Of a DNA stretch of 64,000 nucleotides, positions 1,895 through 59,007 are shown piece by piece. The stretch is from Euzebya pacifica (GTDB lineage: Bacteria > Actinomycetota > Nitriliruptoria > Euzebyales > Euzebyaceae), in the NCBI RefSeq assembly GCF_003344865.1, contig NZ_CP031165.1, positions 496,001 through 560,000 on the forward strand. Reading direction: 5' to 3'. The notes under the pieces were generated by a model. That model worked only from the letters and a program-made list of their open reading frames with translations. It was not told where the DNA came from and ran no database searches. How positions within the stretch are numbered: the stretch's first letter is position 1; every line of letters starts with the position of its first letter. The translations under genes were made by a program, and so were the position numbers.

Positions 1895-2344
1895 TCATCG
1901 GACGCGTGGCAGCCGGTGGGACGATCCGCCGGCGCACGCGACGATGTCGAGGTGGTCGTCGTCGATGACGTAGACGGCGTGCTGTCCGAACGCCCGCCCG
2001 ACCGCGAGCAGGGTGTGGAGGGACGGGCGGCCGCCGTCGAGGGGCACCGCGAAGGAGTCCTCTGACCACCCGCCGTCCGCGGCAGTCCCACGGGCGGGCA
2101 GGACCGTGGCGCCCATCGCCAGCAGCACCGCAGCGAGGTCGGCGTTGGCCTGCCGGTTGGTCGCCTCGTCGGTGGGTCGGCTCTTCGGGTTCCAGGCCGT
2201 GATCACCACGACGCGTGTCGGGAGATCACGACGGGCGGCCGATCCGGCGACACGCGTCCGGGTGGGAAACCACACGTCGACGTCGGTGGCGGCGTACGCC
2301 TCGAGCACGTCGTCGAGGGAGGGGGCGGACGGGTCGGTCACCAC
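1895..2344 (-). CDS. DUF3293 domain protein
   Basis: This 149-residue protein has the DUF3293 hallmarks: VITAWNPKS near residue 50, a conserved N after it (ATNRQAN), and a C-terminal WSEDSFAVP followed by AFGQHAVYVID. The family's function is unknown. The start is the first of two adjacent GTG codons, 7 nt after a CACAAT hexamer, so a leaderless transcript is possible. Residues about 30-45 (TRVAGSAARRDLPTR) are encoded by a copy of the dispersed palindromic element described at 2210-2258. Families of this type normally have a longer segment between the N-terminal strand and the TAWNP motif, so the element may have replaced or disrupted native sequence. Whether the product still folds is unknown. 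Confidence 0.75.
   Translation of the reverse strand: MVTDPSAPSLDDVLEAYAATDVDVWFPTRTRVAGSAARRDLPTRVVVITAWNPKSRPTDEATNRQANADLAAVLLAMGATVLPARGTAADGGWSEDSFAVPLDGGRPSLHTLLAVGRAFGQHAVYVIDDDHLDIVACAGGSSHRLPRVR
2210..2258. repeat. Dispersed palindromic element, copy A (inside the DUF3293 gene)
   Basis: Perfect 11-bp arms GACGCGTGTCG (2210-2220) and CGACACGCGTC (2248-2258) enclose a loop containing GATCACGACGGGCGGCC. The loop matches copies at 16580, 57644/58906 and 58963. It is read through in frame by the DUF3293 gene. Confidence 0.8.
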
Positions 2345-2349
2345 CCGGA

Positions 2350-2448
2350 TTGTGCACCTGGCCCGACCGGCCGGCCGAGCTGCACCACTCCTCCACCGCC
2401 TGGTGCAGCACTGCCGAGGGGCCGGCCAACCTGCACAGTTCAGGGCGG
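2350..2448 (+). repeat. Second dispersed repeat (TTGTGCACC element), copy 1
   Basis: This element fills nearly all of the 108-bp gap between the DUF3293 start and the next gene. It begins TTGTGCACCT and ends CTGCACAGTTCAGGG. Internal complementarity includes CTGCACCA/TGGTGCAG and the terminal TGTGCA/TGCACA. A second copy on the opposite strand at 28981-29079 aligns over 96 nt without gaps at about 62% identity. Its start also supplies the CACAAT hexamer preceding the DUF3293 start. Confidence 0.6.
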
Positions 2449-2452
2449 GCCG

Positions 2453-3076
2453 TCAGTCGTGGGCGACCTCGACGGGGATGCCCCGACGGACGGCCTCGCC
2501 GACCACGACTTCGGTCAGCCCGCGTGACAACAACGCGGTCAGCGCCAGCGGTCCCTCCAGCCGAACCCCGTCACCCGACGTCGTGCGCACGCCCACCAGC
2601 ACCGACGGGCTGCCGTCGATCACCGTGGTGGACACGTCAGCGACGACACCGGCCAGGCGGTCGACGACCCTGCCGGCCAGCCAGCGCAGGCCCGGGATGG
2701 GGACCCAGCGGCCGACGAGCGTCCCGGCGGTTCGCCCGATCAGCCGTCGCGCCGCCATCGCCGCCATCGGTTCCAGCACCACGGCCTCGGTGTCGTCCCA
2801 CCGCGCCGTGTGCGAGCGGATGATCCCGCGGCTCTGCACCCGGTCCGGGTCGACCCGCACGCTGTAGCGGTTGCCGACCGCGCCGATGACGCGGCGGGCA
2901 CGGGGGCCGTGCAGCACCCCTCCGGCGCGACGCCCGAGGTCGTCCAGCAACGGACCGAGGCCCGCGACGAACGGCCCGTCCAGCGGCAGCGCGGGCGCAG
3001 GATGCAGGTTCGCCCAGATCCGCTCCAGCGAGCTGTCGGGTGGGGTCAGGGGGCTGTCGGGCTGGGTGGAGGGCAT
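2453..3076 (-). CDS. Hypothetical protein, not recognised
   Basis: The call is a 207-residue protein from the ATG at 3076. The frame stays open further upstream, but that extension would overlap the divergent cupin gene and has arginine/proline-rich antisense-like composition. The N-terminal 60 residues are polar. A middle stretch with VGNRYSVRV and EPMAAMAARRLIG is followed by alternating hydrophobic segments near LVGRWVPIPGLRWL. The C-terminus reads GLTEVVVGEAVRRGIPVEV. There is no signal peptide and no confident transmembrane helix. I do not recognise a family. It shares a 50-bp divergent promoter region with the cupin gene at 3127. Confidence 0.55.
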   Translation of the reverse strand: MPSTQPDSPLTPPDSSLERIWANLHPAPALPLDGPFVAGLGPLLDDLGRRAGGVLHGPRARRVIGAVGNRYSVRVDPDRVQSRGIIRSHTARWDDTEAVVLEPMAAMAARRLIGRTAGTLVGRWVPIPGLRWLAGRVVDRLAGVVADVSTTVIDGSPSVLVGVRTTSGDGVRLEGPLALTALLSRGLTEVVVGEAVRRGIPVEVAHD

Positions 3077-3126
3077 GGGCAGGGTGTTCCCCGACCGCCG
3101 CGAGCCCACACGAGAGACTGCGCCGC

Positions 3127-3573
3127 ATGACCGACCCCACGGCCCGCGACCTGATCGACCGGCTCGGCATGCAGCCCCATCCGGAGGGCGGCTGGTACGC
3201 CGAGACGTGGCGTGCCCCGGCCGCCGACGGCGAACGGGCCACGAGCACCGCGATCCACTTCCTGCTGGAGGAGGGGCAGCGGTCGCACTGGCACACCGTC
3301 GATGCGGCCGAGATCTGGTGCCACCATGCCGGCGCACCGGTGCGGCTCCGGCTGAGCCCCGACGGCGAGGCGGTGACCGACCACGTCCTCGGTGGCGACG
3401 TCATGGCCGGTCAGGAACCGCAGGTCGTCGTGCCCGAGGGGCACTGGCAGGCCGCCGAGGCAACCGAGGGCTGGAGCCTCGTGACCTGCGTGGTCGCCCC
3501 CGGATTCACCTTCGACGGCTTCGTGCTGGCCGCCCCCGGATGGGAACCGGGGTCAGCTCGCGCAGGAAGATGA
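3127..3573 (+). CDS. Cupin-fold protein, DUF985 (Cupin_5) family
   Basis: This 148-residue protein matches the DUF985 cupin family along its length: LGMQPHPEGGWYAETWR at the N-terminus, then AIHFLLEEGQRSHWHTVDAAEIWCHHAG carrying the usual metal-site histidines (two to three His in a beta-barrel), and a C-terminal APGFTFDGFVLA. The family is cytoplasmic and its substrate is unknown; plant and bacterial relatives are single-domain metal-binding cupins. The start ATG at 3127 follows GAGACT by 7 nt, suggesting a short or absent leader. The gene is divergent from the hypothetical gene ending at 2453 and convergent with the helicase gene beyond the hairpin at 3628. Confidence 0.85.
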   Translation: MTDPTARDLIDRLGMQPHPEGGWYAETWRAPAADGERATSTAIHFLLEEGQRSHWHTVDAAEIWCHHAGAPVRLRLSPDGEAVTDHVLGGDVMAGQEPQVVVPEGHWQAAEATEGWSLVTCVVAPGFTFDGFVLAAPGWEPGSARAGR

Positions 3574-3627
3574 CACCGGGGTGTCGAAACCCACGGCGTG
3601 GTCCCGACCCGACGGTCTGGATCGCGG

Positions 3628-3665
3628 CGCCGGGTCGGCGTCCCACCCCCTCAGTCGACCCGGCG
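3628..3665. terminator. Hairpin between convergent genes
   Basis: Perfect 10-bp arms CGCCGGGTCG and CGACCCGGCG flank an 18-nt loop. It lies between the stop codons of the cupin gene (plus) and the RNA helicase gene (minus). No T-tract is present, as is usual in high-GC actinomycetes. Confidence 0.6.
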
Positions 3666-3679
3666 TCCCCTGACCCCGA

Positions 3680-5467
3680 TCAGGTGATCTTGTCCTCGCG
3701 AACCTTGGCCTTCTTGCCACGGATCTTGGTGCGCATCAGCGAGCTGATGACCTCCTCCGCCGCGGCCGCCGGCACCTCGACCAGGCTGAAGCGACCGTGG
3801 ATCTGGATGGCCCCCACGTCGCGACCGGTCAGGCTGGTCTCGTTGGCGATGGCCCCGACCAGGTCCTTGGGCCGCATGCCGGCCTCGCGACCCAGGTTCA
3901 TCCACAGCTTGGTGGTCGGACCGGAGGAGGAACGGGGCTTGCCGCCGCCCGGCCCGCCTCGGCTGTTCTTGCCCTGGTAGCCGCCCTTGTCGCCCTTGCC
4001 CTTGCCGGAGAAGGACGCCTCGGGGACGTCGTCGTCATCGGCGTCACTGTGGGTCTCGTCGTGCGCCAGCTTGATGCCGGCCAGCGCGATCTCGACCAGG
4101 TCGAACTCGTCGGACAACGACTCCACGACCGGGCGGAAGGTGTCGAGGTCGTCGCCGTCGGCCAGCAACATCTCGCGCATCGACGCGCGGAGCATGCCCA
4201 GGCGACGGGCGCGGAGGTCAGCCACCGTGGGGACGGTCTCGACCTGCATCTTGCGGCCGGTGTGGCGCTCGATGGCCTTCATCGCACGGTGTTCGCGCGG
4301 TTCGACCAGCGAGATGGCCATGCCCTCGCGGCCGGCGCGGCCGACGCGGCCGATGCGGTGCGTGTAGGACTCCACCGCTGACGGCAAGGAGTGGTTGACC
4401 ACGTGGGTCAACGTGTCGATGTCGAGGCCGCGGGCGGCGACGTCGGTGGCGATCAGCAGCTCGGCGGCACCGGAGCGGAAGCGGTTCATCACGCGGTCGC
4501 GCATGCCCTGGTCCATGCCGCCGTGCAGCGCCTCGGCCCGGTAGCCCCGGCCGTTCATGGTGGAGGTCAGCTCGTCGACCTCCAGGCGGGTGCGGCAGAA
4601 CACGATGGTGGCGGCGGGGTCCTCGACGTCCAGCACGCGTGCCAGGGCGGCCGGTTTGTGGTGCCGGGTGACGACGTAGACGACCTCCTTGACCTTCGGC
4701 GCCTCGCCCTCGGCCGGCTCCTCGCGCTTGATCTGGATGCGCACCGGGTTGTTCAGGTGGCGGTCGGCCAGGTAGGAGATACGACGGGGCAGGGTGGCGG
4801 AGAACAGGGTGGTCTGTCGCTCGGCCGGGGCCTGCTCGAGGATGGCCTCGATGTCCTCGGCGAAGCCCATGTCGAGCATCTCGTCGGCCTCGTCGAGCAC
4901 GACGACCTCGAGGCTGTCCAGCGCCAGGGAGCCACGGCCGAGGTGGTCCATCGCCCGGCCGGGGGTGGCCACGACGATGTCGACGCCACGGTCGAGCTGC
5001 TTGAGCTGGCGGAAGATCGGCTGGCCGCCGTAGATCGGCAGGACGCGGGCGCCCATGGCCTTGCCGTAGGTGTGGATGGCCTCCGAGACCTGCATGGCCA
5101 GCTCGCGGGTCGGGACCAGGACCAGCCCGATGGGCTGTCGTCCGCGGTCGACCTCGTCGGGGATGCGCTGCAGCAGGGGGAGGGCGAAGGCGGCGGTCTT
5201 GCCGGTACCCGTGGCGGCCTGGCCGAGCAGGTCACGTCCCGCCAGGAGCGGCGGGATCGCCTCGGCCTGGATCGGGGTGGGCTCCTCGTAGCCGAGCTGG
5301 TCGAGGGCCTTGACGAGCTCCTCGCGCAAGCCGAGGTCGGCGAACGCGGGCGGTGCGTCCGGCCCGGCGTCGGGCGCCGCGTCGGGCCCGGCGTCGGGGC
5401 TGGGGGAGCTGGTGTCGGTGGTGGGTTCCGCGTCGGGAACGTCGGGTTCTTGATCAGGGGGTGTCAC
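3680..5467 (-). CDS. DEAD-box ATP-dependent RNA helicase with DbpA-type RNA-binding domain (DeaD/CsdA-like)
   Basis: This 595-residue protein has all DEAD-box motifs in order after an acidic, proline/alanine-rich tail of about 50 residues: a Q motif (EEPTPIQ), motif I AATGTGKT, PTRELA, DEAD, SAT, and HRIGRVGRAG in the second RecA domain. Residues about 515-590 (WMNLGREAGMRPKDLVGAI and following) form a DbpA RNA-binding domain, preceded by a Gly/Lys-rich linker. The family unwinds RNA during ribosome assembly and cold adaptation in the cytoplasm. I chose GTG 5467 because AAAGG lies 8 nt upstream. The earlier TTG at 5515 abuts the terminator at 5518-5550. Confidence 0.92.
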   Translation of the reverse strand: MTPPDQEPDVPDAEPTTDTSSPSPDAGPDAAPDAGPDAPPAFADLGLREELVKALDQLGYEEPTPIQAEAIPPLLAGRDLLGQAATGTGKTAAFALPLLQRIPDEVDRGRQPIGLVLVPTRELAMQVSEAIHTYGKAMGARVLPIYGGQPIFRQLKQLDRGVDIVVATPGRAMDHLGRGSLALDSLEVVVLDEADEMLDMGFAEDIEAILEQAPAERQTTLFSATLPRRISYLADRHLNNPVRIQIKREEPAEGEAPKVKEVVYVVTRHHKPAALARVLDVEDPAATIVFCRTRLEVDELTSTMNGRGYRAEALHGGMDQGMRDRVMNRFRSGAAELLIATDVAARGLDIDTLTHVVNHSLPSAVESYTHRIGRVGRAGREGMAISLVEPREHRAMKAIERHTGRKMQVETVPTVADLRARRLGMLRASMREMLLADGDDLDTFRPVVESLSDEFDLVEIALAGIKLAHDETHSDADDDDVPEASFSGKGKGDKGGYQGKNSRGGPGGGKPRSSSGPTTKLWMNLGREAGMRPKDLVGAIANETSLTGRDVGAIQIHGRFSLVEVPAAAAEEVISSLMRTKIRGKKAKVREDKIT

Positions 5468-5517
5468 TGGAGAAGCCTTTCGAGGGACCTCCGAGTGTGC
5501 CTGCTCGTGACACAACA

Positions 5518-5550
5518 GCGCCCCCGACCGTTCGAGACGGTAGGGGGCGC
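5518..5550 (-). terminator. Strong hairpin downstream of the CsbD-like gene
   Basis: GCGCCCCC-g-ACCGT pairs with ACGGT-a-GGGGGCGC around a 5-nt loop, giving 13 paired positions with one A/G mismatch. It sits 24 nt past the CsbD-like stop codon and before the helicase start, so it should separate the two transcripts. Confidence 0.75.
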
Positions 5551-5573
5551 GGTGTTCTGGCGGGCCGGTCGGC

Positions 5574-5813
5574 CTAGTTCTGGTGCGACTTCTGCTCGGC
5601 TTCCTCGGCCTTGGCCTCGGCGCGAGCCTTCTCGGCCTCGGCTTCCTTCTGGGACGCCTCGCGCTTGGCTTCGGCCTTGTCCTGCTGGGCCTCGCCCTCG
5701 TTCTCGAGGTCGTCGTTGCCCGTCAGCACGCCGGCAGCCTCCTTGGCCTTGCCCTTGGCGTCCTCGACGACGCCCTTGGCGCCAGCTTCCGGTCCGGTGT
5801 CCTTGTCAGCCAT
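5574..5813 (-). CDS. CsbD-like stress-response protein
   Basis: A 79-residue, highly charged protein starting MADKDTGPEAGAKGVVEDAKGKAKEAAG, which is the CsbD (microaggregate-binding protein 1) pattern. The C-terminal half is a run of alternating Glu/Lys/Ala (QKEAEAEKARAEAKAEEAEQ) predicted to be helical. CsbD-like proteins are small, abundant, mostly disordered stress proteins under general-stress control in other bacteria; the molecular role is unknown. The ATG is preceded by AAGGAGCGA, a good ribosome site. The strong terminator at 5518 follows, so it is probably a single-gene transcript. Confidence 0.85.
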   Translation of the reverse strand: MADKDTGPEAGAKGVVEDAKGKAKEAAGVLTGNDDLENEGEAQQDKAEAKREASQKEAEAEKARAEAKAEEAEQKSHQN

Positions 5814-5947
5814 GGTGTTCGCTCCTTGGTGTTGCGGGGTGGGGTGTTGCCCTCTCGTCCGAAGCGATGCCCGCTGCGTGGGCGCACAAACACCCGCGAA
5901 CGGGCAGGGTCCCGCGAACCGTCACCTGTGCCGCCAAGGCCCGCCCG

Positions 5948-6874
5948 TCAGGCGCCGATCACCGGCAGGATCCAGCCCTCCTCGCGGACCGTGGCCGTGA
6001 TGGCGGTGACGTTCAGGTCGGGCGGGCCGATCGCGGTCAGCAGGCTGCCGTCGCTGGCCATGCGGCGGTAGGCCCTGACGAGGGCGAGCACCTGCGCGGC
6101 GTCACGGACGGGGTGCAGGGCCGGGTCGTGGGGCAGCAGGCTCGGGTAGACCTCGGCGACGACGACCCCGGGGGAGGGGAAGCGTCCGGTGTTGTAGCCG
6201 GTGTCGAAGGGCCAGACGAGCAGCTGCTCCTCGGCGAAGGCCTGGCGCAGCCGGTGGATCACGGGCAGGGCAACGAGGGTCTGCCCGCCGACCGACCCGT
6301 TGTAGGCCACCTGCCACACCGACTTGGGCTGATGGCCCCGGTCGCGCCAGTGCCGTTCGGTGTGGCGCAGCTCGGCCAGCGGCCAGGCGTGCGGCGTGGT
6401 CACGGGATAGGTCGGCTTGGTCGGGTGCAGGTGGGGGAGGGGCTGGGTCTCGGGTCGTCCCCAGAACGGCCCCTCCTCTGCGCCCATCCGCGCGTTGAGC
6501 TCGTTGGCCACGGCGTAGCGGTTGTTGACGTTGCGCTCGTCGTCGGTGATCAGGTCGGCCAGCAGGGTCCGCATCCACGTCCACGGGTCCTCAGCGGCGG
6601 GAAGGCCCAGGGCAGCGGCGGTGCCGGAGGGATAACCGAACGCCGCGTCGATCCCGCACAGGACCCGGCGGCCGTCGTGGGTCAGGCGACGCAGCTCCTC
6701 CTCCATCCAGCGGGCTGCGTCGATGCGGGTGCGGAACGGCAGCACCCGGTCCTCGGCGCCGGGTTCGCCGATGGCCGCCCAGAGGCCGTTGGCCCCACCG
6801 TCGCTCGGTCCCTGCCTGGAGGCGGCGCTCCAGTCCACCATCACGAAGGCATCGGCGGTCCAGCGGTCACTCAC
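5948..6874 (-). CDS. Hypothetical protein, RNase H-fold DUF429-like
   Basis: A 308-residue soluble protein. Visible landmarks are VMVDWSAAS near residue 12, CGIDAAFGYPSG near 72, NRYAVANELNARM near 115, and VVVAEVYPSLLPHD near 235. The spaced acidic positions (VDWSA, GIDAAFGYP, AEVYPS) resemble DUF429 and related RNase H-like families. Alphaproteobacterial proteins with a similar VDWSA start have been annotated loosely as CbiG-like, which I do not accept as a functional call. Its start codon overlaps the end of the upstream P-loop kinase gene by 8 bases, so the two are translationally coupled and likely act together. Substrate unknown. Confidence 0.7.
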   Translation of the reverse strand: MSDRWTADAFVMVDWSAASRQGPSDGGANGLWAAIGEPGAEDRVLPFRTRIDAARWMEEELRRLTHDGRRVLCGIDAAFGYPSGTAAALGLPAAEDPWTWMRTLLADLITDDERNVNNRYAVANELNARMGAEEGPFWGRPETQPLPHLHPTKPTYPVTTPHAWPLAELRHTERHWRDRGHQPKSVWQVAYNGSVGGQTLVALPVIHRLRQAFAEEQLLVWPFDTGYNTGRFPSPGVVVAEVYPSLLPHDPALHPVRDAAQVLALVRAYRRMASDGSLLTAIGPPDLNVTAITATVREEGWILPVIGA

Positions 6875-7400
6875 GGAGGGTCCTGACGAAGTCGGCGGTG
6901 TGGGCGGGAGAGGTGAGGTGGATGAAGCGCAAGCCGGCGTTGGCGGGGTCGGCCATTGCCGCGGTGAACTCCTCCCGCTTGGCCCGGTGGGTCGTCCAGG
7001 CCCACAGCAGGATGTTGCGGTCGGGGTCGCGGCTGAGCAGGTTCGGGAGCTCCTCGCGGTTGCCGTTGTACAGCTCCTCCCGCGTGATCAGTCGACGCAG
7101 GGTACGCGGCACCAGCTGGCGCATGACCCGCCAGCGGGGGTAGTCGAGGTACACCACCGTGTCCGCTCGAGCCCACACCAGGTCCCGCACCGCGGCGTAG
7201 TTGCCGTCCACGACCCAACCGGGTCGTGCGACGAACGCCCCGACCTGCTGGCGGAACGTGGGGGTGTCGATCGGCGTCCAGCCGGGCAGGTGGTGGACCG
7301 CGTCGAGCTGCAGCGCCGGCACGTCGAGCGCTCGGGCCAGCACGCCGGTCAGCGTGGTCTTGCCGACCCCGCTGGTCCCCACCACGCTGACTCGCTGCAC
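6867..7400 (-). CDS. P-loop NTPase, adenylate kinase/topology-modulation (FlaR-like) family
   Basis: A 177-residue protein with Walker A GTSGVGKTT at residues 8-16. It then has LQLDAVHHLPGW and DGNYAAVRDLVWARADTVVYLDYPRW, the pattern of small nucleotide-kinase-like proteins annotated as topology modulation protein or AAA family ATPase. It is cytoplasmic and its substrate is unknown. GTG 7400 was chosen because the P-loop starts seven residues later and a TACCGT hexamer lies exactly 7 nt upstream on the same strand. The frame is open further upstream, but that stretch contains repeats and has no coding character. It overlaps the following DUF429-like gene by 8 bases. Confidence 0.82.
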   Translation of the reverse strand: MQRVSVVGTSGVGKTTLTGVLARALDVPALQLDAVHHLPGWTPIDTPTFRQQVGAFVARPGWVVDGNYAAVRDLVWARADTVVYLDYPRWRVMRQLVPRTLRRLITREELYNGNREELPNLLSRDPDRNILLWAWTTHRAKREEFTAAMADPANAGLRFIHLTSPAHTADFVRTLRE

Positions 7401-7407
7401 CCCACGA

Positions 7408-7413
7408 ACGGTA
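7408..7413 (-). promoter_or_regulatory. Predicted -10 hexamer of a leaderless transcript
   Basis: TACCGT on the minus strand lies 7 nt before GTG 7400, the TANNNT-N6/7-start arrangement of actinobacterial leaderless genes. No clear -35 is visible. Confidence 0.5.
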
Positions 7414-7445
7414 CCCACCGCTCGACCGCACGGCGCCCCCCTCCC

Positions 7446-7579
7446 CGGACGGAATTGCCTCCACGGGTGGATGGAATCGACCGGCTCGACGGGGCGAAAC
7501 CGCGCGTTTCGGGGCTCGGCCCGATGGAATCGCCTCCGCCGGACGACCGACCCGGCCATTTCGGAGGCGATTCCATCCG
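7446..7579. repeat. Cluster of four GGATGGAATCGCCTCC motifs with a 16-bp hairpin
   Basis: In the 216-bp gap before the P-loop kinase gene, related 16-18-mers occur at 7446 (GACGGAATTGCCTCC), 7467 (GGATGGAATCGACC), 7523-7538 (GATGGAATCGCCTCCG) and inverted at 7562-7577. The last two form perfect 16-bp arms around a 23-nt loop. A smaller hairpin CGAAAC-cgcgc-GTTTCG sits at 7495-7511. The hairpin also follows the SARP gene's stop codon by about 40 nt, so operator array and terminator are both possible. Confidence 0.6.
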
Positions 7580-7616
7580 CAGGGGCCGCCGCTGGGCCGG
7601 TCGACCGCACGCTGGG

Positions 7617-16547: not shown

Positions 16548-16579
16548 CCCCGGCGTGGTCCGGGCTGGCCAACCCGGAC

Positions 16580-16622
16580 GCGTGTCGGATTCCGGGCCGC
16601 CCGTCGTGATCACCCGACACGC
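16580..16622. repeat. Dispersed palindromic element, copy B
   Basis: Arms GCGTGTCGG and CCGACACGC enclose a loop with GGCCGCCCGTCGTGATCAC, the reverse complement of the loop of copies A and D. It lies 12 nt past the stop codon of the minus-strand membrane gene and could end its transcript. Confidence 0.8.
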
Positions 16623-16634
16623 GCTGGGGTGGGG

Positions 16635-20269: not shown

Positions 20270-20271
20270 GT

Positions 20272-45506: not shown

Positions 45507-45618
45507 GTGGTTCGTCCGGGGGCGGGCGCACGATCGTGCCGTTCCCCTCCCCTGCGTGGGTTGGGCCCCGATCGTGCCGGTGGCCGCGCGAGCCCCTGCC
45601 GGTGGCCGCGAGGGACGG

Positions 45619-50087: not shown

Positions 50088-50708
50088 ATGAGCAAGCCCG
50101 TCATCCGTGCAGGTATCGCCGCGGCCGTCGTCGTCGTGCTGGCCGTCGCCTTCTGGCTGATCAGTCCCTACTTCGTCGACGAGGTCGTCGACGAGGCGTT
50201 CCCCGGCGAGGACACCGCGGCCGAGACAGGTGCGGACGCTGACTCCGGGGCCTTCCCCCTCTCCGATGGTGCGGTCGTCCCGGACGACATGACCCAGGAG
50301 GAGGTGGAGGCCGAGATGGAGGCCGCGGCGGCCGAGGACGTCGAGGAGGTCGAGGACATGCCCGATGGCGAGCCCACGGCCATCGTCCGGGGCTCCTTCG
50401 TGGGCGCCGACAGCGTCCACCAGGGGTCTGGGTCGGCCACCGTCTACGAGCTCGCCGACGGCAGCCGGGTGCTGCGGCTGGAGGACTTCGAGGTCACCAA
50501 CGGACCGGACCTGCACGTCTACCTCGCCCCGGTCGTCGACGGCACGCCGCAGATCAACGCCGATGCGGTGGACCTCGGCAGCCTCAAGGGCAACGTGGGC
50601 AACCAGAACTACGACGTGCCGGACGGCCTCGACCTGTCCCAGGAGCTGGCGGTCGTCATCTGGTGCCAGCCCTTCCAGGTCACCTTCGCCACCGCGGTGC
50701 TGGGCTGA
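50088..50708 (+). CDS. DM13-domain membrane-anchored protein
   Basis: 206 residues; GAGGCAGG precedes the ATG. A single N-terminal helix (IAAAVVVVLAVAFWLISPYF) anchors it. An acidic stretch (~40-90, EEVEAEMEAAAAEDVEEVED) follows. Residues ~95-206 are the DM13 domain: IVRGSFVGADSVHQGSGSATVYEL, RLEDFEVTNGPDLHVYL, and the conserved cysteine in VVIWCQPFQVTFATAVL. DM13 domains are proposed to take part in extracytoplasmic electron transfer; here that is only family knowledge. A hairpin at 50771 ends the transcript. Confidence 0.9.
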   Translation: MSKPVIRAGIAAAVVVVLAVAFWLISPYFVDEVVDEAFPGEDTAAETGADADSGAFPLSDGAVVPDDMTQEEVEAEMEAAAAEDVEEVEDMPDGEPTAIVRGSFVGADSVHQGSGSATVYELADGSRVLRLEDFEVTNGPDLHVYLAPVVDGTPQINADAVDLGSLKGNVGNQNYDVPDGLDLSQELAVVIWCQPFQVTFATAVLG

Positions 50709-50770
50709 CCCGCACACGGACCGGCGTCCGGATTACCACCGTTGTCGTAGGACCCGTGTAGTATGAATCG

Positions 50771-50808
50771 CAACGCCTCCACGTCCGCCGCCCGGGCTGG
50801 AGGCGTTG
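50771..50808 (+). terminator. Terminator hairpin after the DM13 gene
   Basis: Perfect 11-bp arms CAACGCCTCCA and TGGAGGCGTTG with a 16-nt GC-rich loop, 62 nt past the DM13 stop, followed by TCAATTCC. An alternative view is that it marks the start of the next transcript's leader. Confidence 0.7.
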
Positions 50809-50904
50809 TCAATTCCGGAGTCGGGTCCGGTGTCGGCCACGGAGATGGCCGCGGGGTCGAGCCTGCCCCGACGGCGGTGCCGGCGCGCGTACCCTCCGCA
50901 CCGT

Positions 50905-52164: not shown

Positions 52165-52279
52165 CTTCGGCGGCGCGTTACGTCTCACTACGGTGAGTGA
52201 ACATCTTCCTGAAGTCGTCTCCCCATGGGGCTACGCTGCGACACACGGGAACGTCGAGGCAGTACCCAGGGGTGGAAAC

Positions 52280-55200
52280 GTGAAGTCGAGGATCGTCGTG
52301 GGCGCGCGCGGACGCGTCCGGCTCGTGGTGTTGATGCTCTCCATGGTGGCGGCGACGCTGCTGGCGGTACCGCCGGCAGCCGTGGCGCAGCCCACGCTAC
52401 CGACCGACTTCGTCATCGAGAACGTGATGGACGTGTCGGACACCGTCCTGGCCGCTGGCATGGCGTTCCTGCCGGGCGAGCCCCTCCTGGCGGTCGCTGG
52501 GAAGCGCGGACTCGTCGACCTCTACGGCGAGGACGGCACACGCCACGGCCGCATCCTGGACATCTCCGACAAGGTCAACCACAACAACGACCACGGGCTG
52601 ACGGGCATCGCGTTCCATCCCGACTTCGACCGGGCCGACCCTGCCACCAGGCTGCTGTACCTGTGGTACGTCTGGGATCCGGACGGACTGGCCGACGAGG
52701 GCAGCGGACGGCGCATCTCGCGCCTGACGTCGGTGGAGCTTGCCCCCGTCGTGCGTGACCTCGGGGCGGGCGTGCAGGTGCAGTCCTACGAGGTCGTCCC
52801 CGGCAGTGAGGCGGTGGTCCTCGGTGGGGCCGGGATGGCCGACCCGTGGGCTCCGACCCCGGCCGAGCTCGAGGCCGCACTCGGTCCCGACCCCGACTGC
52901 GCGACGACCGGTGGCCTGTGCTTCCCCGGCTGCCTGAACGACGGGGACCCCAGCAACGACGCCGACTGCCTCCCGACGGCGGCATGCACCGATGGCGCCG
53001 GATACCTCGAGGACTGCGTCGCGGCGGACGACACGTTGCACGCCGTCGGCACCCTGCGCTTCGGGCCCGACGGCGCACTCCACGCCGGGCACGGCGACGG
53101 GGCGTCGGCCTCCGTCGCCGACCCCCGAGCCTTCCGGGCCGGCGACCCCGACAGCCTGAACGGCAAGGTCCTGCGCATCGACCCTGCCACCGGCCTGGGG
53201 CTGCCCGACAACCCTTGGTACAGCGGCGACCCGACGGACAACCGCTCACGGGTCGTGGCAGCCGGCCTGCGCAACCCGTTCCGCTTCGCCGTGCACCCCG
53301 AACGCAACGACCTGCTGCTCGGCGACGTGGGCTTCTCCACCATGGAGGAGGTCAACGCGGGACGGGGCGGGACGCACGGATGGCCGTGCTACGAAGGAGG
53401 ACAGGGCGAGAACCTGCCGACCTTCCAGTACTCCGGCGAGGAGGCCTGCCAGGACCTCTACGACGACGTGGCCAACGGTGCGGTCGACATCACCCCCGCG
53501 CTGCATGCCTATCGCCACGACTCCTACATCCCCCCCGGCGCCGATCCGCCGAGTGGCGGTTCGATCATCGGCGGTGACTGGTTCCGCGGGACCGGCTGGC
53601 CGCTGACCTATCAGGAAGGATGGTTCTTCTCCGACTTCGAGGACCGGACGCTGTCGTACCTGCCGGCGGCTCGTGACAGCGGGGGGCTGGCCACCGGCAA
53701 CCTTGCCGACGCGGAGCTGTTCGCGACCGACATCGGCTTCGTCGTCGACGTGCAGCTCGCCCCCGACGGGACGCTGTGGCTGCTCGACATCGTGGACGGG
53801 TCCATCAACCGCGTCCGGTACGTCGGTGAGGACCCCAACCGTGCCCCGGTCATCTCCCCGCCGGCCGACCAGGCCAGCGGGCTCGGCGGCGACGTCAACC
53901 TCCAGCTGCTCGCCAGCGACCCCGACGGCCAGCCCGTGACCTTCTCGGTCGATCCGGCAGGTCCGCTGCCGCCCGGCATCGTCATGTCGGCGACGGGCCG
54001 GATCACCGGCCAGCCCACCACTCCCGGCACCTACGACGTCATCGTGGTGGCCAGCGACGGGGACCGGACCAGCTCGTCGACGTTCCAGTGGACCGTCGAC
54101 ACCACCTACGCCCCGCAGGCCAGCATCACCAGCCCGACGGTCGAGGACGGGTACGCCATCGGCGACATGGTCGCCATGACCGGCGAGGCAACCGACGCCG
54201 AGGACGGCCAGCTGACCGGCACGTCGCTGGAGTGGCACGTCCAGATCCACCACAACAACCACGTGCATCCCGACGAGGCCTCCGGCACGGGCGCGAGCCT
54301 CGCGCCGTTCTGGATCCCCGACCACGGCAGCAACTGGTACCTCACCGGGTGTCTCACCGCCACCGACTCCAGCGGGTACACCGACGTGGAGTGCATCGAC
54401 CTGCGGATGGACGAGCACGAGTACACCATCACCACCGACCCGCCGGGACTGCCGGTGCTGCTCGGTGGCGCGCAGATCACCCAGCCCACCTCCTTCACGC
54501 TGTACACCAACCAGCGCGTGACGGTCTCCAGCCCGCTGCAGCAGGGCGCACTGACGTTCGTCGGGTGGTCCAGCGGCCGTGCACACACCCATGCCATCGT
54601 CGGTGGCGTGTCCACGACGGACGTCGTGGCTCGCTACGTCGACACCGCCGCACCGACCAACCAGGCGCTCGCGGGCACGGCCCGGCAGTCCACCACCCAC
54701 ACCTACACCCCCTGTGGCCCGCATGCGGCCAGCAAGGCGATCGACGGCAGCGTCGCCGGCTACGAGGGTGACTGCTCCATCAGCCACACGTCGAAGGGCA
54801 CCAACCAGTGGTGGGAGGTCGACCTCGGCGGGATGCGCCTCGTCGAGGAGGTCCGCGTCTGGAACTGGCTGCAGCACTCGTTGGGACGGCTCTCCAACGG
54901 CCACGTGATGGTCTCCCCCACGCCGTTCGGTTCGCGAACGCTGGACCAGCTCCTGGCGGACCCGACCATCACCGTCACGTCCTTCTCCGCCACCGTCGGC
55001 CGGCCGACCACCTTCGTCGAGGGCGTTCGCGGACGCTACGTCCGGATCCTCCTCGAGGGCCCGGGGCGTGAACTCGTCATGTCGGAGGTCCAGGTCATCG
55101 CCGGGCCCCTGCGTCCGCCAGTCGGTGCCGTGTCGGTGCCCACGGGCATCATCCAGCGCGGCGCCCCAGCGCCCCTGGCTGCCGAGAGCTGGGTCGACCC

Positions 55201-57643
55201 CGACGCGTCGAGCCTGACCTACGCGTGGACCCTGGACGGCGCCAGCAGCGCCGGCTTCGACGACCCGACGTCGGCGACCCCGATTCTCGACACAACGGAC
55301 CTGACCAGCGGCGTCCACACCGTCACCGTCACCGTCACCGACGGCGACGGACAGACCGCGCAGGCCAGCGCCGACATCGAGATCGAGTCCGAGCCCCTGC
55401 CCCCGGTCGCGGCCATCGCCGACCCGGGTCCCGCCGTCGACGCCGGCACGCCCGTGCCGCTGGACGCGTCGAGCTCCTCCGACCCGCAGGGCGCGGCCCT
55501 GACGTTCGCGTGGGACCTCGACGACGACGGCGCCTTCGACGACGCCACCGGGGCGACGACCACGCTGGACACCACCGGCTTCCCCGCAGGCACCCACCCG
55601 GTGGCGGTCCGCGTGACCAACACCTTCGGCCTCGAGGACACGGCAAGCGCATCTGTCGCCGTGACCGAACCCGTCGAACCCGCTGACCCGCCCGTCGCGG
55701 CGCTGGCCGACCCCGGCCCTGCCGTTGCCGTCGGCACGGTCGTCGACATGGACGCATCCGCCTCGACCGACCCAGAGGGCGGCCCCCTCGCCTTCGCCTG
55801 GGACGTCGACGACGACGGGGCCTTCGACGCCGACGAGGGGACGACGGCGATCAACCCGGTCGACACCGCCCTCCTGGGTGCCGGCGACCACGACATCACC
55901 GTCCGGGTCACCTCGGGTGCCAGCGGGCTGCAGGACACCGCCACGCGGGTGCTCAGCGTCCGCACGCCACCGACGGCGACGATCGACGACCCCGAGGGGC
56001 CCTACGAGGTCGGCCAGCAGGTCCCGCTGGACGCGTCCACGTCCACCGATCCGCACGGCGGGTCGCTGGCCTTCGCGTGGGACCTCGACGAGGACGGCGC
56101 GTTCGACGATGCGACCGGTCCCGAGACGACCCTGGACACCACCGGCTTCGCCGTCGGGATCCACGAGGTCGTCGTCCGCGTCACCTCCGACGCCACCGGA
56201 CTGGCCGGTGAGGCCGTGGCACGCATCGCCGTCACCGACCCCGCCCCGGGTGGCGGCGGGGGCAGCCCCGGCGGGGGTGGCAGCCCCGGCGGCGGTGGTG
56301 GTGGCGTCCCCATCGAACCCGAGCCCGAGCATGCCGACATCTCCCTCGACCTGACCGCCTCGCCCCGCGAGGTCGCGGTCGACGAACCCGTGGTCATCAC
56401 GACCCGTGTGCACAACGACGGTCCCGCAGAGGCGCCGGTCCTCCTCGCCCTCGACCTCGGTGACCTCGACCTCGTCGCCGCCCCCGAGGACTGTCGCGCC
56501 GTCGATGGCAGCCTGACCTGCGAAGGCGTCCGGCTGGCCGCTGGGCAGTCCCACGAGCTGGAGGTGGAGCTGTCGGCGAGCACGGTCGGCTCCCAGACCG
56601 TCGAGGCCACGGCCACCGTGGCGGACGTGATCGACCCCACGCCGGACGACCTGACCGCCTCGACGACGTTCAGCACCTTCGACGCCCAGTCGGGCGGAGA
56701 GGACGCCATCAGCCCGGCGGCGCTGGCCATCGAGCTGTCGCAGCGCCTGTACCGCGACGTGGACGGCACGCGCGGCGAGGGTCGACGCCAGGCGGCAGCC
56801 GTCGTGCTGTCCCGCGACGACGCCTTCGCCGACTCCCTCACCGGGTCGGCGCTGACGGGCGACTCGCCGTTGTTGTTCACCGACCCGGCGCAGCTGGACC
56901 CCGCCACGGCGGCGGAGATCCGTCGGATGCTGCCCCTCGAGGGCGAGGTCCTGGTCCTCGGAGGCGAGGCCGCGCTGTCGGCTGCGGTGGCCGACGAGCT
57001 CGCCGACATGGGCTACCTCGTCAGGCGGCTTGCTGGCCCCAGCAGGGTCGAGACGTCCGTCGCCATCGCCGAGGAGGTTGCGCGTCGCCACGACGTGCCC
57101 CGCCAGGTCGGCATCGCCCGTGCCGACGGCCCGTCGGACAACCCCACGGCGGCGTGGGCGGACTCCGTCACCGCTGGTGGCTGGGCTGCCCGGACGCGGC
57201 AGCCGATCCTGCTGACCCCCACCGCCGAGCTGCATCCCGCGGTCGAGGCGTGGCTGGCCGAGCACGGCAACGCGGTCCCGATCGTCATGGGCGGCGAGGC
57301 CGCCTTGTCGGAAGACGTGGCACGAGCCGTCGGCCCGCACCTGCGCCACGCCGGCGCGAACCGGTACGAGACCGCGGCCATGATCGCCGAGCGACGGTGG
57401 GACGATCCCGCTGGGTACCTGGTCACGGCCGGCGACCACGAGCTCGGCTGGGCCTACGGCCTTGCGGCGGCAGGCCTGTCCGCGGCGACCAACCAGCCGT
57501 TGCTGCTCGTCGAGCAGGACCGCCTGCCGGAGGAGACGGCGACCGCGCTGTGCGACAGCCGCCAGGAGGCCCGGGTCGAGTTCGTCGGCGGCTCCGACGT
57601 GGTCTCGTCATCGGTCCGCGACGCCGTCACCGCCCTCTGCTAG
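52280..57643 (+). CDS. Giant secreted PQQ-dependent sugar dehydrogenase-like / PKD / CWB2 fusion protein
   Basis: 1787 residues from GTG 52280 (AGGGGTGG just upstream; an earlier GTG at 52193 is possible). Signal: VRLVVLMLSMVAATLLAVPPAAVA. Residues ~35-515 form a soluble glucose/aldose dehydrogenase-type propeller (NHNNDHGLTGIAFHPDF, GLRNPFRFAVHPERNDLLLGD, GWPCYEGG). Then come a cadherin/He_PIG-like Ig module (~520-605), GSDH-associated modules to ~790, an F5/8-type discoidin-like module (~790-945, KAIDGSVAGYEG, WWEVDLGGMRLVEEVRVW), four PKD-like repeats (~950-1320, LDASSSSDPQGAALTFAWDL), a Gly-rich linker, a CARDB-like module (~1350-1470) and three CWB2 repeats (~1475-1787). Probably a wall-bound carbohydrate-oxidising or -binding protein. 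It ends at the split palindromic element. Confidence 0.88.
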   Translation: MKSRIVVGARGRVRLVVLMLSMVAATLLAVPPAAVAQPTLPTDFVIENVMDVSDTVLAAGMAFLPGEPLLAVAGKRGLVDLYGEDGTRHGRILDISDKVNHNNDHGLTGIAFHPDFDRADPATRLLYLWYVWDPDGLADEGSGRRISRLTSVELAPVVRDLGAGVQVQSYEVVPGSEAVVLGGAGMADPWAPTPAELEAALGPDPDCATTGGLCFPGCLNDGDPSNDADCLPTAACTDGAGYLEDCVAADDTLHAVGTLRFGPDGALHAGHGDGASASVADPRAFRAGDPDSLNGKVLRIDPATGLGLPDNPWYSGDPTDNRSRVVAAGLRNPFRFAVHPERNDLLLGDVGFSTMEEVNAGRGGTHGWPCYEGGQGENLPTFQYSGEEACQDLYDDVANGAVDITPALHAYRHDSYIPPGADPPSGGSIIGGDWFRGTGWPLTYQEGWFFSDFEDRTLSYLPAARDSGGLATGNLADAELFATDIGFVVDVQLAPDGTLWLLDIVDGSINRVRYVGEDPNRAPVISPPADQASGLGGDVNLQLLASDPDGQPVTFSVDPAGPLPPGIVMSATGRITGQPTTPGTYDVIVVASDGDRTSSSTFQWTVDTTYAPQASITSPTVEDGYAIGDMVAMTGEATDAEDGQLTGTSLEWHVQIHHNNHVHPDEASGTGASLAPFWIPDHGSNWYLTGCLTATDSSGYTDVECIDLRMDEHEYTITTDPPGLPVLLGGAQITQPTSFTLYTNQRVTVSSPLQQGALTFVGWSSGRAHTHAIVGGVSTTDVVARYVDTAAPTNQALAGTARQSTTHTYTPCGPHAASKAIDGSVAGYEGDCSISHTSKGTNQWWEVDLGGMRLVEEVRVWNWLQHSLGRLSNGHVMVSPTPFGSRTLDQLLADPTITVTSFSATVGRPTTFVEGVRGRYVRILLEGPGRELVMSEVQVIAGPLRPPVGAVSVPTGIIQRGAPAPLAAESWVDPDASSLTYAWTLDGASSAGFDDPTSATPILDTTDLTSGVHTVTVTVTDGDGQTAQASADIEIESEPLPPVAAIADPGPAVDAGTPVPLDASSSSDPQGAALTFAWDLDDDGAFDDATGATTTLDTTGFPAGTHPVAVRVTNTFGLEDTASASVAVTEPVEPADPPVAALADPGPAVAVGTVVDMDASASTDPEGGPLAFAWDVDDDGAFDADEGTTAINPVDTALLGAGDHDITVRVTSGASGLQDTATRVLSVRTPPTATIDDPEGPYEVGQQVPLDASTSTDPHGGSLAFAWDLDEDGAFDDATGPETTLDTTGFAVGIHEVVVRVTSDATGLAGEAVARIAVTDPAPGGGGGSPGGGGSPGGGGGGVPIEPEPEHADISLDLTASPREVAVDEPVVITTRVHNDGPAEAPVLLALDLGDLDLVAAPEDCRAVDGSLTCEGVRLAAGQSHELEVELSASTVGSQTVEATATVADVIDPTPDDLTASTTFSTFDAQSGGEDAISPAALAIELSQRLYRDVDGTRGEGRRQAAAVVLSRDDAFADSLTGSALTGDSPLLFTDPAQLDPATAAEIRRMLPLEGEVLVLGGEAALSAAVADELADMGYLVRRLAGPSRVETSVAIAEEVARRHDVPRQVGIARADGPSDNPTAAWADSVTAGGWAARTRQPILLTPTAELHPAVEAWLAEHGNAVPIVMGGEAALSEDVARAVGPHLRHAGANRYETAAMIAERRWDDPAGYLVTAGDHELGWAYGLAAAGLSAATNQPLLLVEQDRLPEETATALCDSRQEARVEFVGGSDVVSSSVRDAVTALC

Positions 57644-57665
57644 CCACGCGTGTCGGGTGTTCACG
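57644..57665. repeat. Dispersed palindromic element, copy C, left half (split by the IS)
   Basis: CCACGCGTGTCGGGTG and following bases to 57665 begin right after the stop codon of the dehydrogenase-CWB2 gene. Its 15-bp arm CCACGCGTGTCGGGT is exactly complementary to 58923-58937. The last three bases (ACG) are the duplicated target. Confidence 0.75.
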
Positions 57666-58905
57666 CTTGATGTCAACCGGTGGGTGCAACAAGTTGGGCG
57701 AGTTGGGCGGCTGGTGTCTTCCAGCCGAGGGTTTGTCGGGGGCGGGTGTTGAGGCTCTCGGCGAAGTCGTTGAGGTTCGCTGGGGTGTGGACTGACAGGT
57801 CGGTGCCCTTGGGCATGTACTGGCGCAGCAACCCGTTGGTGTTCTCGTTGGAACCGCGTTGCCAGGGCGAGTGGGGGTCGCAGAAGTAGACGGGCACGTC
57901 GGTGTCGATGGTGAACTGGACGTGCTCGGCCATCTCGATGCCCTGGTCCCAGGTGATGGACCGCCGCAGGTGCTCGGGCAGCCCGGTGATCGCGGTGGTC
58001 ATGGCATCGCGCACCGTCGCGGCGGTCCGGTCGCCATCGAGGTGCATCAGCATCACGTAGCGCGTGGAGCGCTCCACAAGGGTGCCCACCGCGGACTTGC
58101 CGTCCTTGCCGATGATCAGGTCGCCCTCCCAGTGACCGGGCACGGCACGGTCCTCCACCTCCGCGGGCCGCTCGCTGATCATCACCATGTCGTGCATGCG
58201 TGGCCGGGGAGACCGACCGGAGGGGACCCGCTTGGCCCGACCGGTCCGCAGGCACGACGTCAGCTCGCGTCGCAGCTCGCCCCGCCCCTGGACGTACAGC
58301 GACTTGTAGATCGTCTCGTGTGACACCGTCATCGACTCATCGTCGCCGAACCGCTCCTTGAGATCTGCCGCGATCTGCTGGGGCGACCACAGTCTGCGCA
58401 GGCCGTGCTCGACGAGGCCGGCCAGCTCCGCGCAGCTGGCGAGCTTGGTCGGCTTGGCCCGCCGTGCCTGCTCGTGGGCACGCTTGTGGGCAAGCATCGG
58501 CCGGTAGGCCTCACGGCCACCGTTGCGGTCCACCTCGCGCCACACCGAGGACTTGTGCCGGCCGACCCGATCGGCGATGGCCTGATAGGTCTCGCCCCGA
58601 CCGATCCCCAACCGGATCTCCACCCGATCATCAAGCGACAACCGGTGCGGTGAGGGATCAGTCGCAAGCTCTGCCCGCAACACCCCACCGAACGGCTTGA
58701 GCACGTTGAGGAAGCTGCCCACGGAGATGTCGACCTCCTCAAGGATCTGCCGGCGGCCCTGACCGGCTCGTGCCCGACGGATCACCTCCGCCCGCACCTC
58801 ATCAGGCAACCGCAACCACCGCTTCTCACCCTTGGCCCTCGACCTCACCATGACCTACCGCCTCCACCTCGAAGTGTCGTGTTGCAACGAAGTCTTGAGG
58901 CTGCC
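57666..58905 (-). mobile_element. IS30-family insertion sequence, 1240 bp
   Basis: The limits were inferred by comparing the two flanks with intact palindromic copy D. Removing 57666-58905 and one ACG rebuilds a continuous palindromic element. The ends are imperfect inverted repeats sharing GTGCAACA and TTGCAACA about 19 nt in. Flanking ACG (57663-57665 and 58906-58908) is a 3-bp target duplication, within the 2-4 bp usual for IS30. It carries one intact transposase gene filling nearly all of it. Confidence 0.8.
57673..58851 (-). CDS. IS30-family transposase
   Basis: 392 residues. N-terminal HTH regions (LPDEVRAEVIRRARAGQGRRQILEEV and ETYQAIADRVGRHKSSVWREVDRNGG, the latter an IS30 signature) bind the ends. 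The DDE catalytic core is intact: D in PGHWEGDLIIG, D in SITWDQGIEMAEH, and E in WQRGSNENTNGLLRQYMPKG. Family length is normal and no frameshift is seen, so the element may be active. The stop codon falls within the left inverted repeat, 7 bp from the element's end. It cuts copy C of the palindromic repeat. Confidence 0.95.
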   Translation of the reverse strand: MVRSRAKGEKRWLRLPDEVRAEVIRRARAGQGRRQILEEVDISVGSFLNVLKPFGGVLRAELATDPSPHRLSLDDRVEIRLGIGRGETYQAIADRVGRHKSSVWREVDRNGGREAYRPMLAHKRAHEQARRAKPTKLASCAELAGLVEHGLRRLWSPQQIAADLKERFGDDESMTVSHETIYKSLYVQGRGELRRELTSCLRTGRAKRVPSGRSPRPRMHDMVMISERPAEVEDRAVPGHWEGDLIIGKDGKSAVGTLVERSTRYVMLMHLDGDRTAATVRDAMTTAITGLPEHLRRSITWDQGIEMAEHVQFTIDTDVPVYFCDPHSPWQRGSNENTNGLLRQYMPKGTDLSVHTPANLNDFAESLNTRPRQTLGWKTPAAQLAQLVAPTG

Positions 58906-58937
58906 ACGGCGGGCGGCCCAGAACCCGACACGCGTGG
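58906..58937. repeat. Dispersed palindromic element, copy C, right half
   Basis: It starts with ACG (target duplication), continues GCGGGCGGCCCAGAA and ends with the arm ACCCGACACGCGTGG (58923-58937), complementary to the left half at 57644. Confidence 0.75.
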
Positions 58938-58962
58938 GGGTGGTCGGGCGGCGCCACCCGGC

Positions 58963-59007
58963 CGCCTGTCGGGTGATCACGGCGGGCGGCCGAGAACCCG
59001 ACAGGCG
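58963..59007. repeat. Dispersed palindromic element, copy D
   Basis: Perfect 12-bp arms CGCCTGTCGGGT and ACCCGACAGGCG around loop GATCACGGCGGGCGGCCGAGA. The arm has CCTG/CAGG where copies A-C have CGTG/CACG, a compensatory change. It directly abuts the stop codon of the minus-strand ABC exporter gene and probably terminates it. Confidence 0.82.

What the first reader, a model, noticed from the sequence alone, without database searches (positions are those of the whole stretch)
2210..59007. A dispersed palindromic element, four copies in 64 kb, with compensatory arm changes
Copies at 2210-2258, 16580-16622, 57644-57665 plus 58906-58937 (split) and 58963-59007 share a loop core (GATCACGRCGGGCGGCC, in either orientation) and long perfect arms (9-15 bp). 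Arm sequence differs between copies but pairing is kept: CGTGTCGG/CCGACACG in A-C against CCTGTCGG/CCGACAGG in D. Outer bases vary too (GACGCG/CGCGTC, CCACGCG/CGCGTGG). Paired change with a conserved loop implies the hairpin itself is selected or copied as a structure. Three copies lie 0-12 nt past stop codons, so terminator or REP-like roles fit; one lies within a gene. I do not know a described family with this core.
Basis: seen in the sequence. Interest (0 to 1): 0.75.

Follow-up and report, generated by a model that had tools for sequence, protein, structure and literature searches.

The report
Palindromes paired with a homing-type nuclease
The repeat is one of about a hundred copies of a short DNA palindrome scattered through this actinobacterial chromosome, and such palindromes, here and in distant relatives, bracket a gene for a DNA-binding nuclease, which suggests a repeat-spreading system built on an enzyme not known for such repeats.

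Summary
The four copies are real and are the tip of a large family. Neighbouring copies stand head-to-tail at 72-73 bp (51 of 56 distances). The family is shared with one congener, where copy number and loop type have turned over in place.

The same ends with other interiors are enriched in scattered Actinomycetota. A RAYT-type domain is missing from 11 of 12 enriched genomes. Instead a gene for an AbiEi-like DNA-binding region fused to a Vsr/I-Bth0305I-like nuclease domain is bracketed by the palindromes in several lineages, and other genes of that family are bracketed by other matching palindromes (11 of 45 by one fixed criterion; 0 of 860 ORFs and 0 of 4500 random anchors). Best reading: a REP-like repeat whose partner is an inverted-repeat-binding, homing-type nuclease. 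Binding, cutting and spread by gene conversion are inferred, not shown.

The parts
2211..2257 (+). Copy A, subfamily I, single; dyad TGTCG-N27-CGACA at 2216-2252, inner columns 11/37 and 12/36 unpaired; inside a predicted ORF
16578..16624 (-). Copy B, subfamily I, single, between convergent genes
57646..57665 (+). Copy C, 5' part, just after a stop codon (ORF end 57643)
57666..58904 (-). IS30-family insertion sequence that splits copy C; transposase ORF 57673-58851 (-)
   Evidence: CACG repeated at 57662-57665 and 58905-58908
58905..58935 (+). Copy C, 3' part; its core lies 73 bp before that of copy D
58962..59008 (+). Copy D, subfamily I; with copy C a head-to-tail doublet
45531..45574 (.). 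Single match to a second palindrome type (CGATCGTGCC...GGCCCCGATCG) that stands in a 72-bp tandem array beside the other DUF559 gene of this genome (L396)

Best explanation
The element is a REP-like dispersed palindrome whose recognised unit is a duplex dyad, TGTCG-N27-CGACA, repeated head-to-tail at a genome-specific near-constant period. Its cognate protein is most likely an AbiEi-like inverted-repeat-binding region fused to a Vsr/I-Bth0305I-like (homing-type) endonuclease domain, encoded in this genome at C1:2101703-2102671 between two doublets of the palindrome. Proposed working: two protein molecules sit on the two arms of a dyad, as AbiEi monomers do on their operator; this regulates the gene itself, and nicking or cutting at a dyad starts repair from another copy, which spreads copies, changes array length, homogenises arrays and replaces one subfamily by another in place and in the same orientation. 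Shown here: the dyad, its spacing, arrays, turnover, the bracketing of the nuclease gene in several lineages and the predicted two-domain architecture. Inferred: binding, autoregulation, cutting, and conversion as the way of spread.
For: Dyad: 135 vs 1 (reversed control) in the own genome, 74/2 in a congener, and 102/4, 25/1, 24/0, 13/2, 12/0 in another family of the order, 33/0, 21/1, 12/2, 11/1, 8/0 in family f41. N27 is the only enriched spacing between 15 and 45 (86 vs at most 4 in own-genome loci, 103 vs at most 3 in 43 Actinoplanes lutulentus loci; these loci were chosen for their elements). Half-sites near invariant (columns 6-10 and 38-42) in 144 distinct copies; transition mismatches show no strand preference in five other genomes, which fits duplex recognition. 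Period: 72-73 bp in 51 of 56; 61-62 in 56 of 57 in A. lutulentus, where the scan admitted 47-77; linkers unconserved. Turnover in place: 6 of 24 orthologous comparisons are type I (or intermediate) against type II; copies within arrays 89% identical against 77% between sites; two sites lack the element in the congener. Partner: AbiEi-DUF559 is the most recurrent neighbour family in the element loci given, 8 lineages, next best 4; exact dyads lie within 1.2 kb of 7 of 49 DUF559 matches (0.78 expected from genome densities; reversed control 0; ten other spacings together 5), on both sides in 5, plus both sides in G008 and in a Solirubrobacteraceae record where start and stop codons lie inside the palindromes. 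The flanked label is clustered on the DUF559 tree (7 changes against 10.9 shuffled, 1 of 500 as low; without the five added genes 5 against 6.6, 20 of 500). Other DUF559 genes are bracketed by other matching palindromes: by one criterion 11 of the 45 usable genes (13 of 50 with five added ones), controls 0 of 860 and 0 of 4500. Architecture: AbiEi models down to 8e-32; C-terminal domain aligns to the I-Bth0305I catalytic domain and 3hrl (Z 13.4 each) and Vsr (Z 11.2), residues 2-196 to AbiEi (Z 8.5, rmsd 6.0). AbiEi monomers bind two 23-bp inverted repeats 3 bp apart, and Rv2827c has two such pairs in tandem (PMC7319586, passages).
Against: No partner was found beside TGTCG elements in G001, G017 or A. 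lutulentus, although PF04480 also missed the element-flanked genes of G008 and G012. Pfam's DUF559 reached its cut-off in 2 of 5 element-flanked proteins scanned (L109, L350); L347 was below it, L311 and L299 had no match at 0.01. Unrelated genes are bracketed too in element-rich genomes (a nucleotidyltransferase in L078/L130). Flanked genes are not one clade. Palindromes as such are common beside all DUF559 genes (15 of 19 in the half without TGTCG flanks); only matching pairs discriminate. In A. lutulentus pairing at variable columns is at or below shuffled level. The bracketing could reflect autoregulation only. The middle of the model is of low confidence (parts of residues 92-200), and the AbiEi match of Z 8.5 is little above common values. 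No target-site duplication or cut site could be defined.
Confidence: 0.6

Rival explanations
1. Operator network: the protein is an AbiEi-like transcription regulator, the palindromes are its operators, and the dispersed copies are a regulon or nucleoid-organising sites; the nuclease domain is incidental.
For: AbiEi and Rv2827c bind pairs of inverted repeats, Rv2827c two pairs in tandem (PMC7319586). Half-sites near invariant, no strand preference. Some arrays lie between divergent genes (7 of 47).
Against: Many arrays lie between convergent genes and some inside genes (19 and 7 of 47); interiors are alike within arrays and subfamilies; palindromes also follow the 3' end of the nuclease gene; presence/absence between congeners.
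Confidence: 0.2
2. Ordinary REP-like parasitic repeat spread by an unidentified or lost transposase; the nuclease gene is merely a frequent neighbour.
For: Dispersed, mostly extragenic, 3'-end rich, interiors limited to two congeners; REP families without a dedicated transposase are known (CGTC type, PMC3733652, abstract and passages).
Against: Y1 transposase domain in only 1 of 12 enriched genomes, a partial match; bracketing by matching palindromes of several unrelated sequences with no such case in 860 control ORFs; head-to-tail only, whereas such dimers are absent or rare in most REPs.
Confidence: 0.15
3. Transcription terminator or RNA-stabilising hairpin.
For: Sits within 30 nt of the gene end on 25 of 38 sides of convergent arrays in the own genome; the 25-copy alignment folds as a hairpin.
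Against: No T-run, G-rich 3' flank; near-invariant half-sites and fixed interior length are not needed for a terminator; strand is not tied to gene direction in tandem contexts (10 of 28 same); occurs in divergent regions and inside genes.
Confidence: 0.05

Closest known systems
REP / BIME / REPIN with RAYT (TnpA-REP)
   Same: Short dispersed extragenic palindromes, clustered, at 3' ends, targets of insertion sequences; an enzyme gene bracketed by its own palindromes
   Different: No Y1 transposase here, no conserved unpaired GTAG/CGTC tag, head-to-tail only at a near-constant period, candidate partner is an AbiEi-like region fused to a Vsr-like nuclease domain
AbiE type IV toxin-antitoxin antitoxin AbiEi / Rv2827c
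   Same: Two-domain DNA-binding region; operators are paired inverted repeats, in Rv2827c in tandem
   Different: Extra C-terminal nuclease domain; palindromes on both sides of the gene and dispersed through the genome; presence of an AbiEii toxin gene was not tested
I-Bth0305I / Vsr-like endonucleases (DUF559, REase_MTES_1575)
   Same: Catalytic-domain fold of the model (Z 13.4 and 11.2)
   Different: Free-standing gene between copies of a palindrome; an intron or intein setting was not looked for
IS30 family
   Same: The element in the window has rve and HTH_38 domains; that IS30 elements prefer palindromic targets is recalled
   Different: It is a passenger: 5 of 8 near-full copies split a subfamily I or II palindrome

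Membership tests
REP (GTAG/CGTC) | Dispersed, mostly extragenic palindrome in many copies | tested here: met
   135 dyads in the own genome vs control 1; 40 of 47 arrays outside predicted genes
REP (GTAG/CGTC) | Conserved unpaired GTAG or CGTC tag at one end | tested here: not met
   Column frequencies: outer columns and flanks variable, TGTCG/CGACA lie in the paired arms
REP (GTAG/CGTC) | Associated RAYT (Y1_Tnp); holds for GTAG REPs, CGTC REPs are reported to lack one | tested here: not met
   0 in own genome; 1 of 12 enriched genomes, a partial match in G012
BIME/REPIN | Neighbouring units in opposite orientation | tested here: not met
   0 opposite neighbours within 120 bp; 54 linkers all head-to-tail
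AbiEi-like DNA-binding protein (partner gene) | AbiEi two-domain region | tested here: met
   PADLOC AbiEi down to 7.9e-32 (4 of 4 scanned), Pfam AbiEi_4 above cut-off in 5 of 5 element-flanked proteins scanned; fold match Z 8.5 with rmsd 6.0
AbiE type IV toxin-antitoxin system | Adjacent AbiEii (DUF1814) toxin gene | not tested
   Neighbouring genes were not scanned for it
Vsr/I-Bth0305I-type endonuclease (partner gene) | Catalytic-domain fold | tested here: met
   Z 13.4 to 3r3p and 3hrl, 11.2 to Vsr; 4.7e-4 in Foldseek; model pLDDT 64-90 per ten residues there
Vsr/I-Bth0305I-type endonuclease (partner gene) | Nicking or cleavage activity | not testable with these tools
   Needs an enzyme assay; residues E207, H252, D261 (numbering of L347) invariant in 5 of 5 aligned, D234 in 4 of 5
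Intrinsic terminator | G+C-rich stem followed by a run of T | tested here: not met
   3' flank G-rich at positions +3 to +9 in 91 arrays

The most novel reading that the evidence does not exclude
A widespread homing system without intron or intein: families of AbiEi-Vsr nucleases, each encoded between copies of its own 33-45-bp palindrome, multiply that palindrome through the chromosome by nuclease-started gene conversion, in head-to-tail arrays of fixed period; several such pairs coexist in one genome (TGTCG and GATCG types here; TGTCG and TCTTGAGCGA types in Actinoplanes lutulentus).
Probability: 0.35. Interest if true: 0.95.

Novelty: new variant of a known kind. Interest (0 to 1): 0.85.

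Why it matters
How short palindromic repeats multiply has been tied to one enzyme family, the RAYTs; REP-like families without a RAYT have had no candidate enzyme that I know of. This gives one that can be tested directly, proposes a role for a family of AbiEi-DUF559 fusion genes from their flanks, and offers natural enzyme-palindrome pairs with distinct sequences, useful for specificity studies.

Tried and rejected
Compensatory arm evolution within a subfamily: rejected as evidence. One-strand RNA hairpin: no strand preference of mismatches in five other genomes; column pair 12/36 in subfamily I does lean to G-T (32 of 93), so not excluded there. Structured linker between doublets: mean fold z only -0.38. 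Helical phasing of the periods: 40, 60-62, 70 and 72-73 bp do not all fit whole turns; not claimed. RAYT. Rfam: no match in the window. Palindrome presence alone beside DUF559 genes: not discriminating. A first tree display compared only two-sided with one-sided rows (4 changes, shuffled 4.1) and says nothing on flanked against unflanked; that was run. First AF2 model too weak (pLDDT 55.9). Copy number of other palindromes: 0 of the two G003 types in 400 kb of G003; five copies of the TCTTGAGCGA type in 541 kb of A. lutulentus, none in 1.26 Mb of five other genomes. Papers: what I saw was listings, except abstract and passages of PMC3733652 and passages of PMC1525189 and PMC7319586. Searches for DUF559 with palindromic, AbiEi, Vsr, homing endonuclease or REP listed nothing on this link in the held library, which is not all literature; the I-Bth0305I paper is not held and its EDxHD motif is recalled only.

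Rows dropped: of the 49 DUF559 matches four were left out of the trees and (a fragment, two of another architecture, one misread frame), and five genes found through their elements were added; unbiased counts are therefore given for 45. Copies not exactly 47 bp long, and two weak ones, were left out. The first control drew its 2000 anchors partly from the DUF559 loci themselves and gave 43 hits, the 25 printed all in such loci; one search repeated it without them (0 hits).
Full report
1. What is in the window. The three intact copies and the split one are present as described. Copies C and D form a doublet whose cores are 73 bp apart; copy C is split by an IS30-family element (rve and HTH_38 domains). 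That IS has 11 matches in the own genome. Of the eight near-full copies five split a subfamily I or II palindrome (L186, L188, L189, L192, L193), two have junctions between TGTCG and CGACA ends with another interior (L190; L194, itself interrupted), and one (L191) lies just beside a copy. IS elements targeting REPs are known (PMC1525189, passages).

2. Genome-wide family. A covariance model from 25 copies found 116 matches, both strands of a palindrome often counted, all on the 5.80-Mb contig and none on the 0.57-Mb one (for 47 arrays the chance is about 0.012). The scan scored only its 150 best candidates, so counts are lower bounds. Analysed copies of exactly 47 bp: 84 here and 61 in one congener, G002. 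With this model 4 of 41 genomes (own included) matched at E 0.01, two of them by single weak hits, and 2 of 198 phylum genomes at 1e-4. A pattern for this interior found nothing in the 84,980-species collection, from which own and near records may be left out.

3. Anatomy. Two subfamilies, I and II, share the half-sites TGTCG and CGACA; columns 6-10 and 38-42 are near invariant in 144 distinct copies. Of 56 neighbour distances 36 are 73 bp and 15 are 72. All 54 linkers examined join units in the same orientation; 52 are 25-26 nt, and they are not conserved in sequence. The 91 arrays hold one (41), two (46) or three (4) units. By my own simple ORF caller 19 of 47 arrays here lie between convergent genes, 14 tandem, 7 divergent and 7 inside genes; among the window's gene pairs at least 30 nt apart 8 are convergent, 15 tandem and 11 divergent.

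4. Evolution. Of 40 own-genome loci 27 match a fetched G002 element locus over their flanks, as do the three window sites, flanks mostly 85-93% identical. Array length differs at several sites, and in 6 of 24 comparisons one species has type I (or intermediate) units and the other type II, in the same place and orientation. Units within an array are 89% identical on average, units of different sites of the same subfamily and species 77%. Of five further sites found in G002 stretches two lack the element (L083, L104), one keeps a remnant (L089), one has it (L105) and one aligns on one side only (L086). L083 is flanked by a 20-bp repeat, which may be a duplication or the trace of a deletion. This fits local amplification and conversion between copies better than repeated fresh insertion; that step is inference.

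5. The deeper constant. Reading IS junctions showed other interiors between the same ends. The pattern TGTCG-N27-CGACA, against the reversed pattern, counts 135/1 here, 74/2 in G002, 22/1 in G001, 9/5 in G003, and 102/4, 25/1, 24/0, 13/2 and 12/0 in five genomes of another family of the order. In 396 phylum genomes most are near background; family f41 holds 33/0, 21/1, 12/2, 11/1 and 8/0, while a few others stand above control (14/0 and 11/1 in f27) without a shared interior in the rows printed. G012 has five pairs at exactly 62, G001 73 and 60, G348 70, G015 40 and 99. Spacings other than N27 show no peak in any set; 270 kb of G002 not chosen for elements holds 2 at N27 and up to 4 elsewhere, in line with about 13 per Mb.

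6. Structure or duplex? Interiors in other genomes are dyad-like: pairing 0.72 (G001), 0.65 (G307), 0.61 (G022), 0.55 (G017) and 0.44 (G012) against 0.29 in chance hits; above partner-shuffling in G001 (p 0.001; two interior types there inflate it), G017 (0.011) and G022 (0.021), not in G307 (0.084) or G012 (0.31); no strand preference of mismatches (only the printed part of each genome's matches). In A. lutulentus variable columns pair at or below shuffled level. I read the unit as a duplex dyad bound by a protein; a hairpin role is not excluded.

7. The partner gene. No RAYT-type domain here. The gene between the two doublets of L109 encodes AbiEi_4 plus DUF559. The same protein family lies beside the elements in other loci. 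Clustering all ORFs of at least 120 aa within 250 bp of an element in the loci given, this family recurs in 8 lineages at 10 loci; the next groups reach 4. From the gene side: of 49 DUF559 matches in 16 of 20 genomes 7 have an exact dyad within 1.2 kb against 0.78 expected, 5 on both sides (G000, G002, G015, G022, G307); G008 and a Solirubrobacteraceae record add two-sided cases, and G010, G012 and an Acidimicrobiales record one-sided ones, besides G392 and G348. In the Solirubrobacteraceae record the ATG lies in the upstream and the TGA in the downstream palindrome. In G003 the related gene is bracketed by variants of the same ends, though no family of them showed in 400 kb of that genome.

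8. Other pairs. Looking for any matching palindromes (33-45 bp, perfect 5-bp ends, at least 60% alike) on both sides of the gene gave 13 of 50 DUF559 genes, 11 of the 45 unbiased ones; besides TGTCG types these have GCATGCGTGA, CGGGGTGG, TGAACC, GGACAC, TGGTTG, GCGGATTCC and GATCG ends. The same test gave 0 of 4500 random anchors and 0 of 860 ORFs in the window, G002 and G003 stretches. L421 has four units before the coding part and two after it, both sets at 61 bp; L396, the second DUF559 gene of this genome, is followed by four units at exactly 72 bp, and one copy of that type lies in the window. L430 of A. lutulentus has five units of the TCTTGAGCGA type after the gene and none matched before it; five more copies lie in 541 kb of the same genome, none in 1.26 Mb of five others.

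9. The protein. Element-flanked proteins match AbiEi models over about 170 residues; the PDB profile search lists 3hrl (0.002), 3r3p (0.31) and AbiEi 6y8q (0.64). Pfam's DUF559 reached its cut-off in 2 of 5, so the nuclease domain of the others rests on alignment and fold. A model of the Solirubrobacteraceae protein (mean pLDDT 67) matches the I-Bth0305I catalytic domain, 3hrl and Vsr for residues about 200-303 and AbiEi for 2-196, the latter with rmsd 6.0; RAP-like domains of mitoribosomes also rank high for the nuclease part. AbiEi monomers bind two 23-bp inverted repeats 3 bp apart and bend DNA; Rv2827c has two such pairs in tandem (PMC7319586, passages). That is close to the anatomy found here.

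10. Tree. The 12 genes with exact TGTCG dyads on one or both sides all fall among 31 of the 50 rows, none among the other 19. The label needs 7 changes against 10.9 in shuffles (1 of 500 as low); without the five added genes 5 against 6.6 (20 of 500); it is clustered but not one clade, and the congener pair helps it. With unbiased rows 7 of 27 against 0 of 18 (p 0.031) and 4 of 9 against 3 of 36 in the best clade (p 0.022). Some genes of the other half are bracketed by other palindromes.

11. Verdict. A REP-like family by anatomy, not a member of the tagged REPs by the features tested; most likely served by an AbiEi-Vsr nuclease. The link is genetic association; biochemistry is open.

Noticed in passing
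window 45531-45574: Match to a second palindrome type (CGATCGTGCC...GGCCCCGATCG) that stands in a tandem array beside the other DUF559 gene of this genome.
   Followed up: partly
window 57666-58904; L186, L188-L197: IS30-family element with 11 matches in the genome, mostly set in TGTCG palindromes; its target sites revealed further interior types.
   Followed up: partly
L194 near 137 and 2690; L197 near 1817: Another interior type (TGTCGGCTGGGTCGCGAGGGGGTCGACTGGTCCGACA and similar), apparently in arrays, in the own genome; not counted or modelled.
   Followed up: no
L079/L117, L095/L137, L098/L139: Doublets inside predicted genes of both congeners; by hand the length differences are multiples of three in two pairs and zero in the third, and in two pairs the subfamily differs between species.
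   Followed up: partly
L291 4860-5010: Phycicoccus sonneratiae: 51-bp tandem palindromes of yet another sequence directly before an AbiEi-DUF559-like gene.
   Followed up: no
window 62-1885 and 52193-57643: Long ORFs with acidic D-rich repeats and cell-wall-binding-like repeats near the copies; described from reading the translation only.
   Followed up: no
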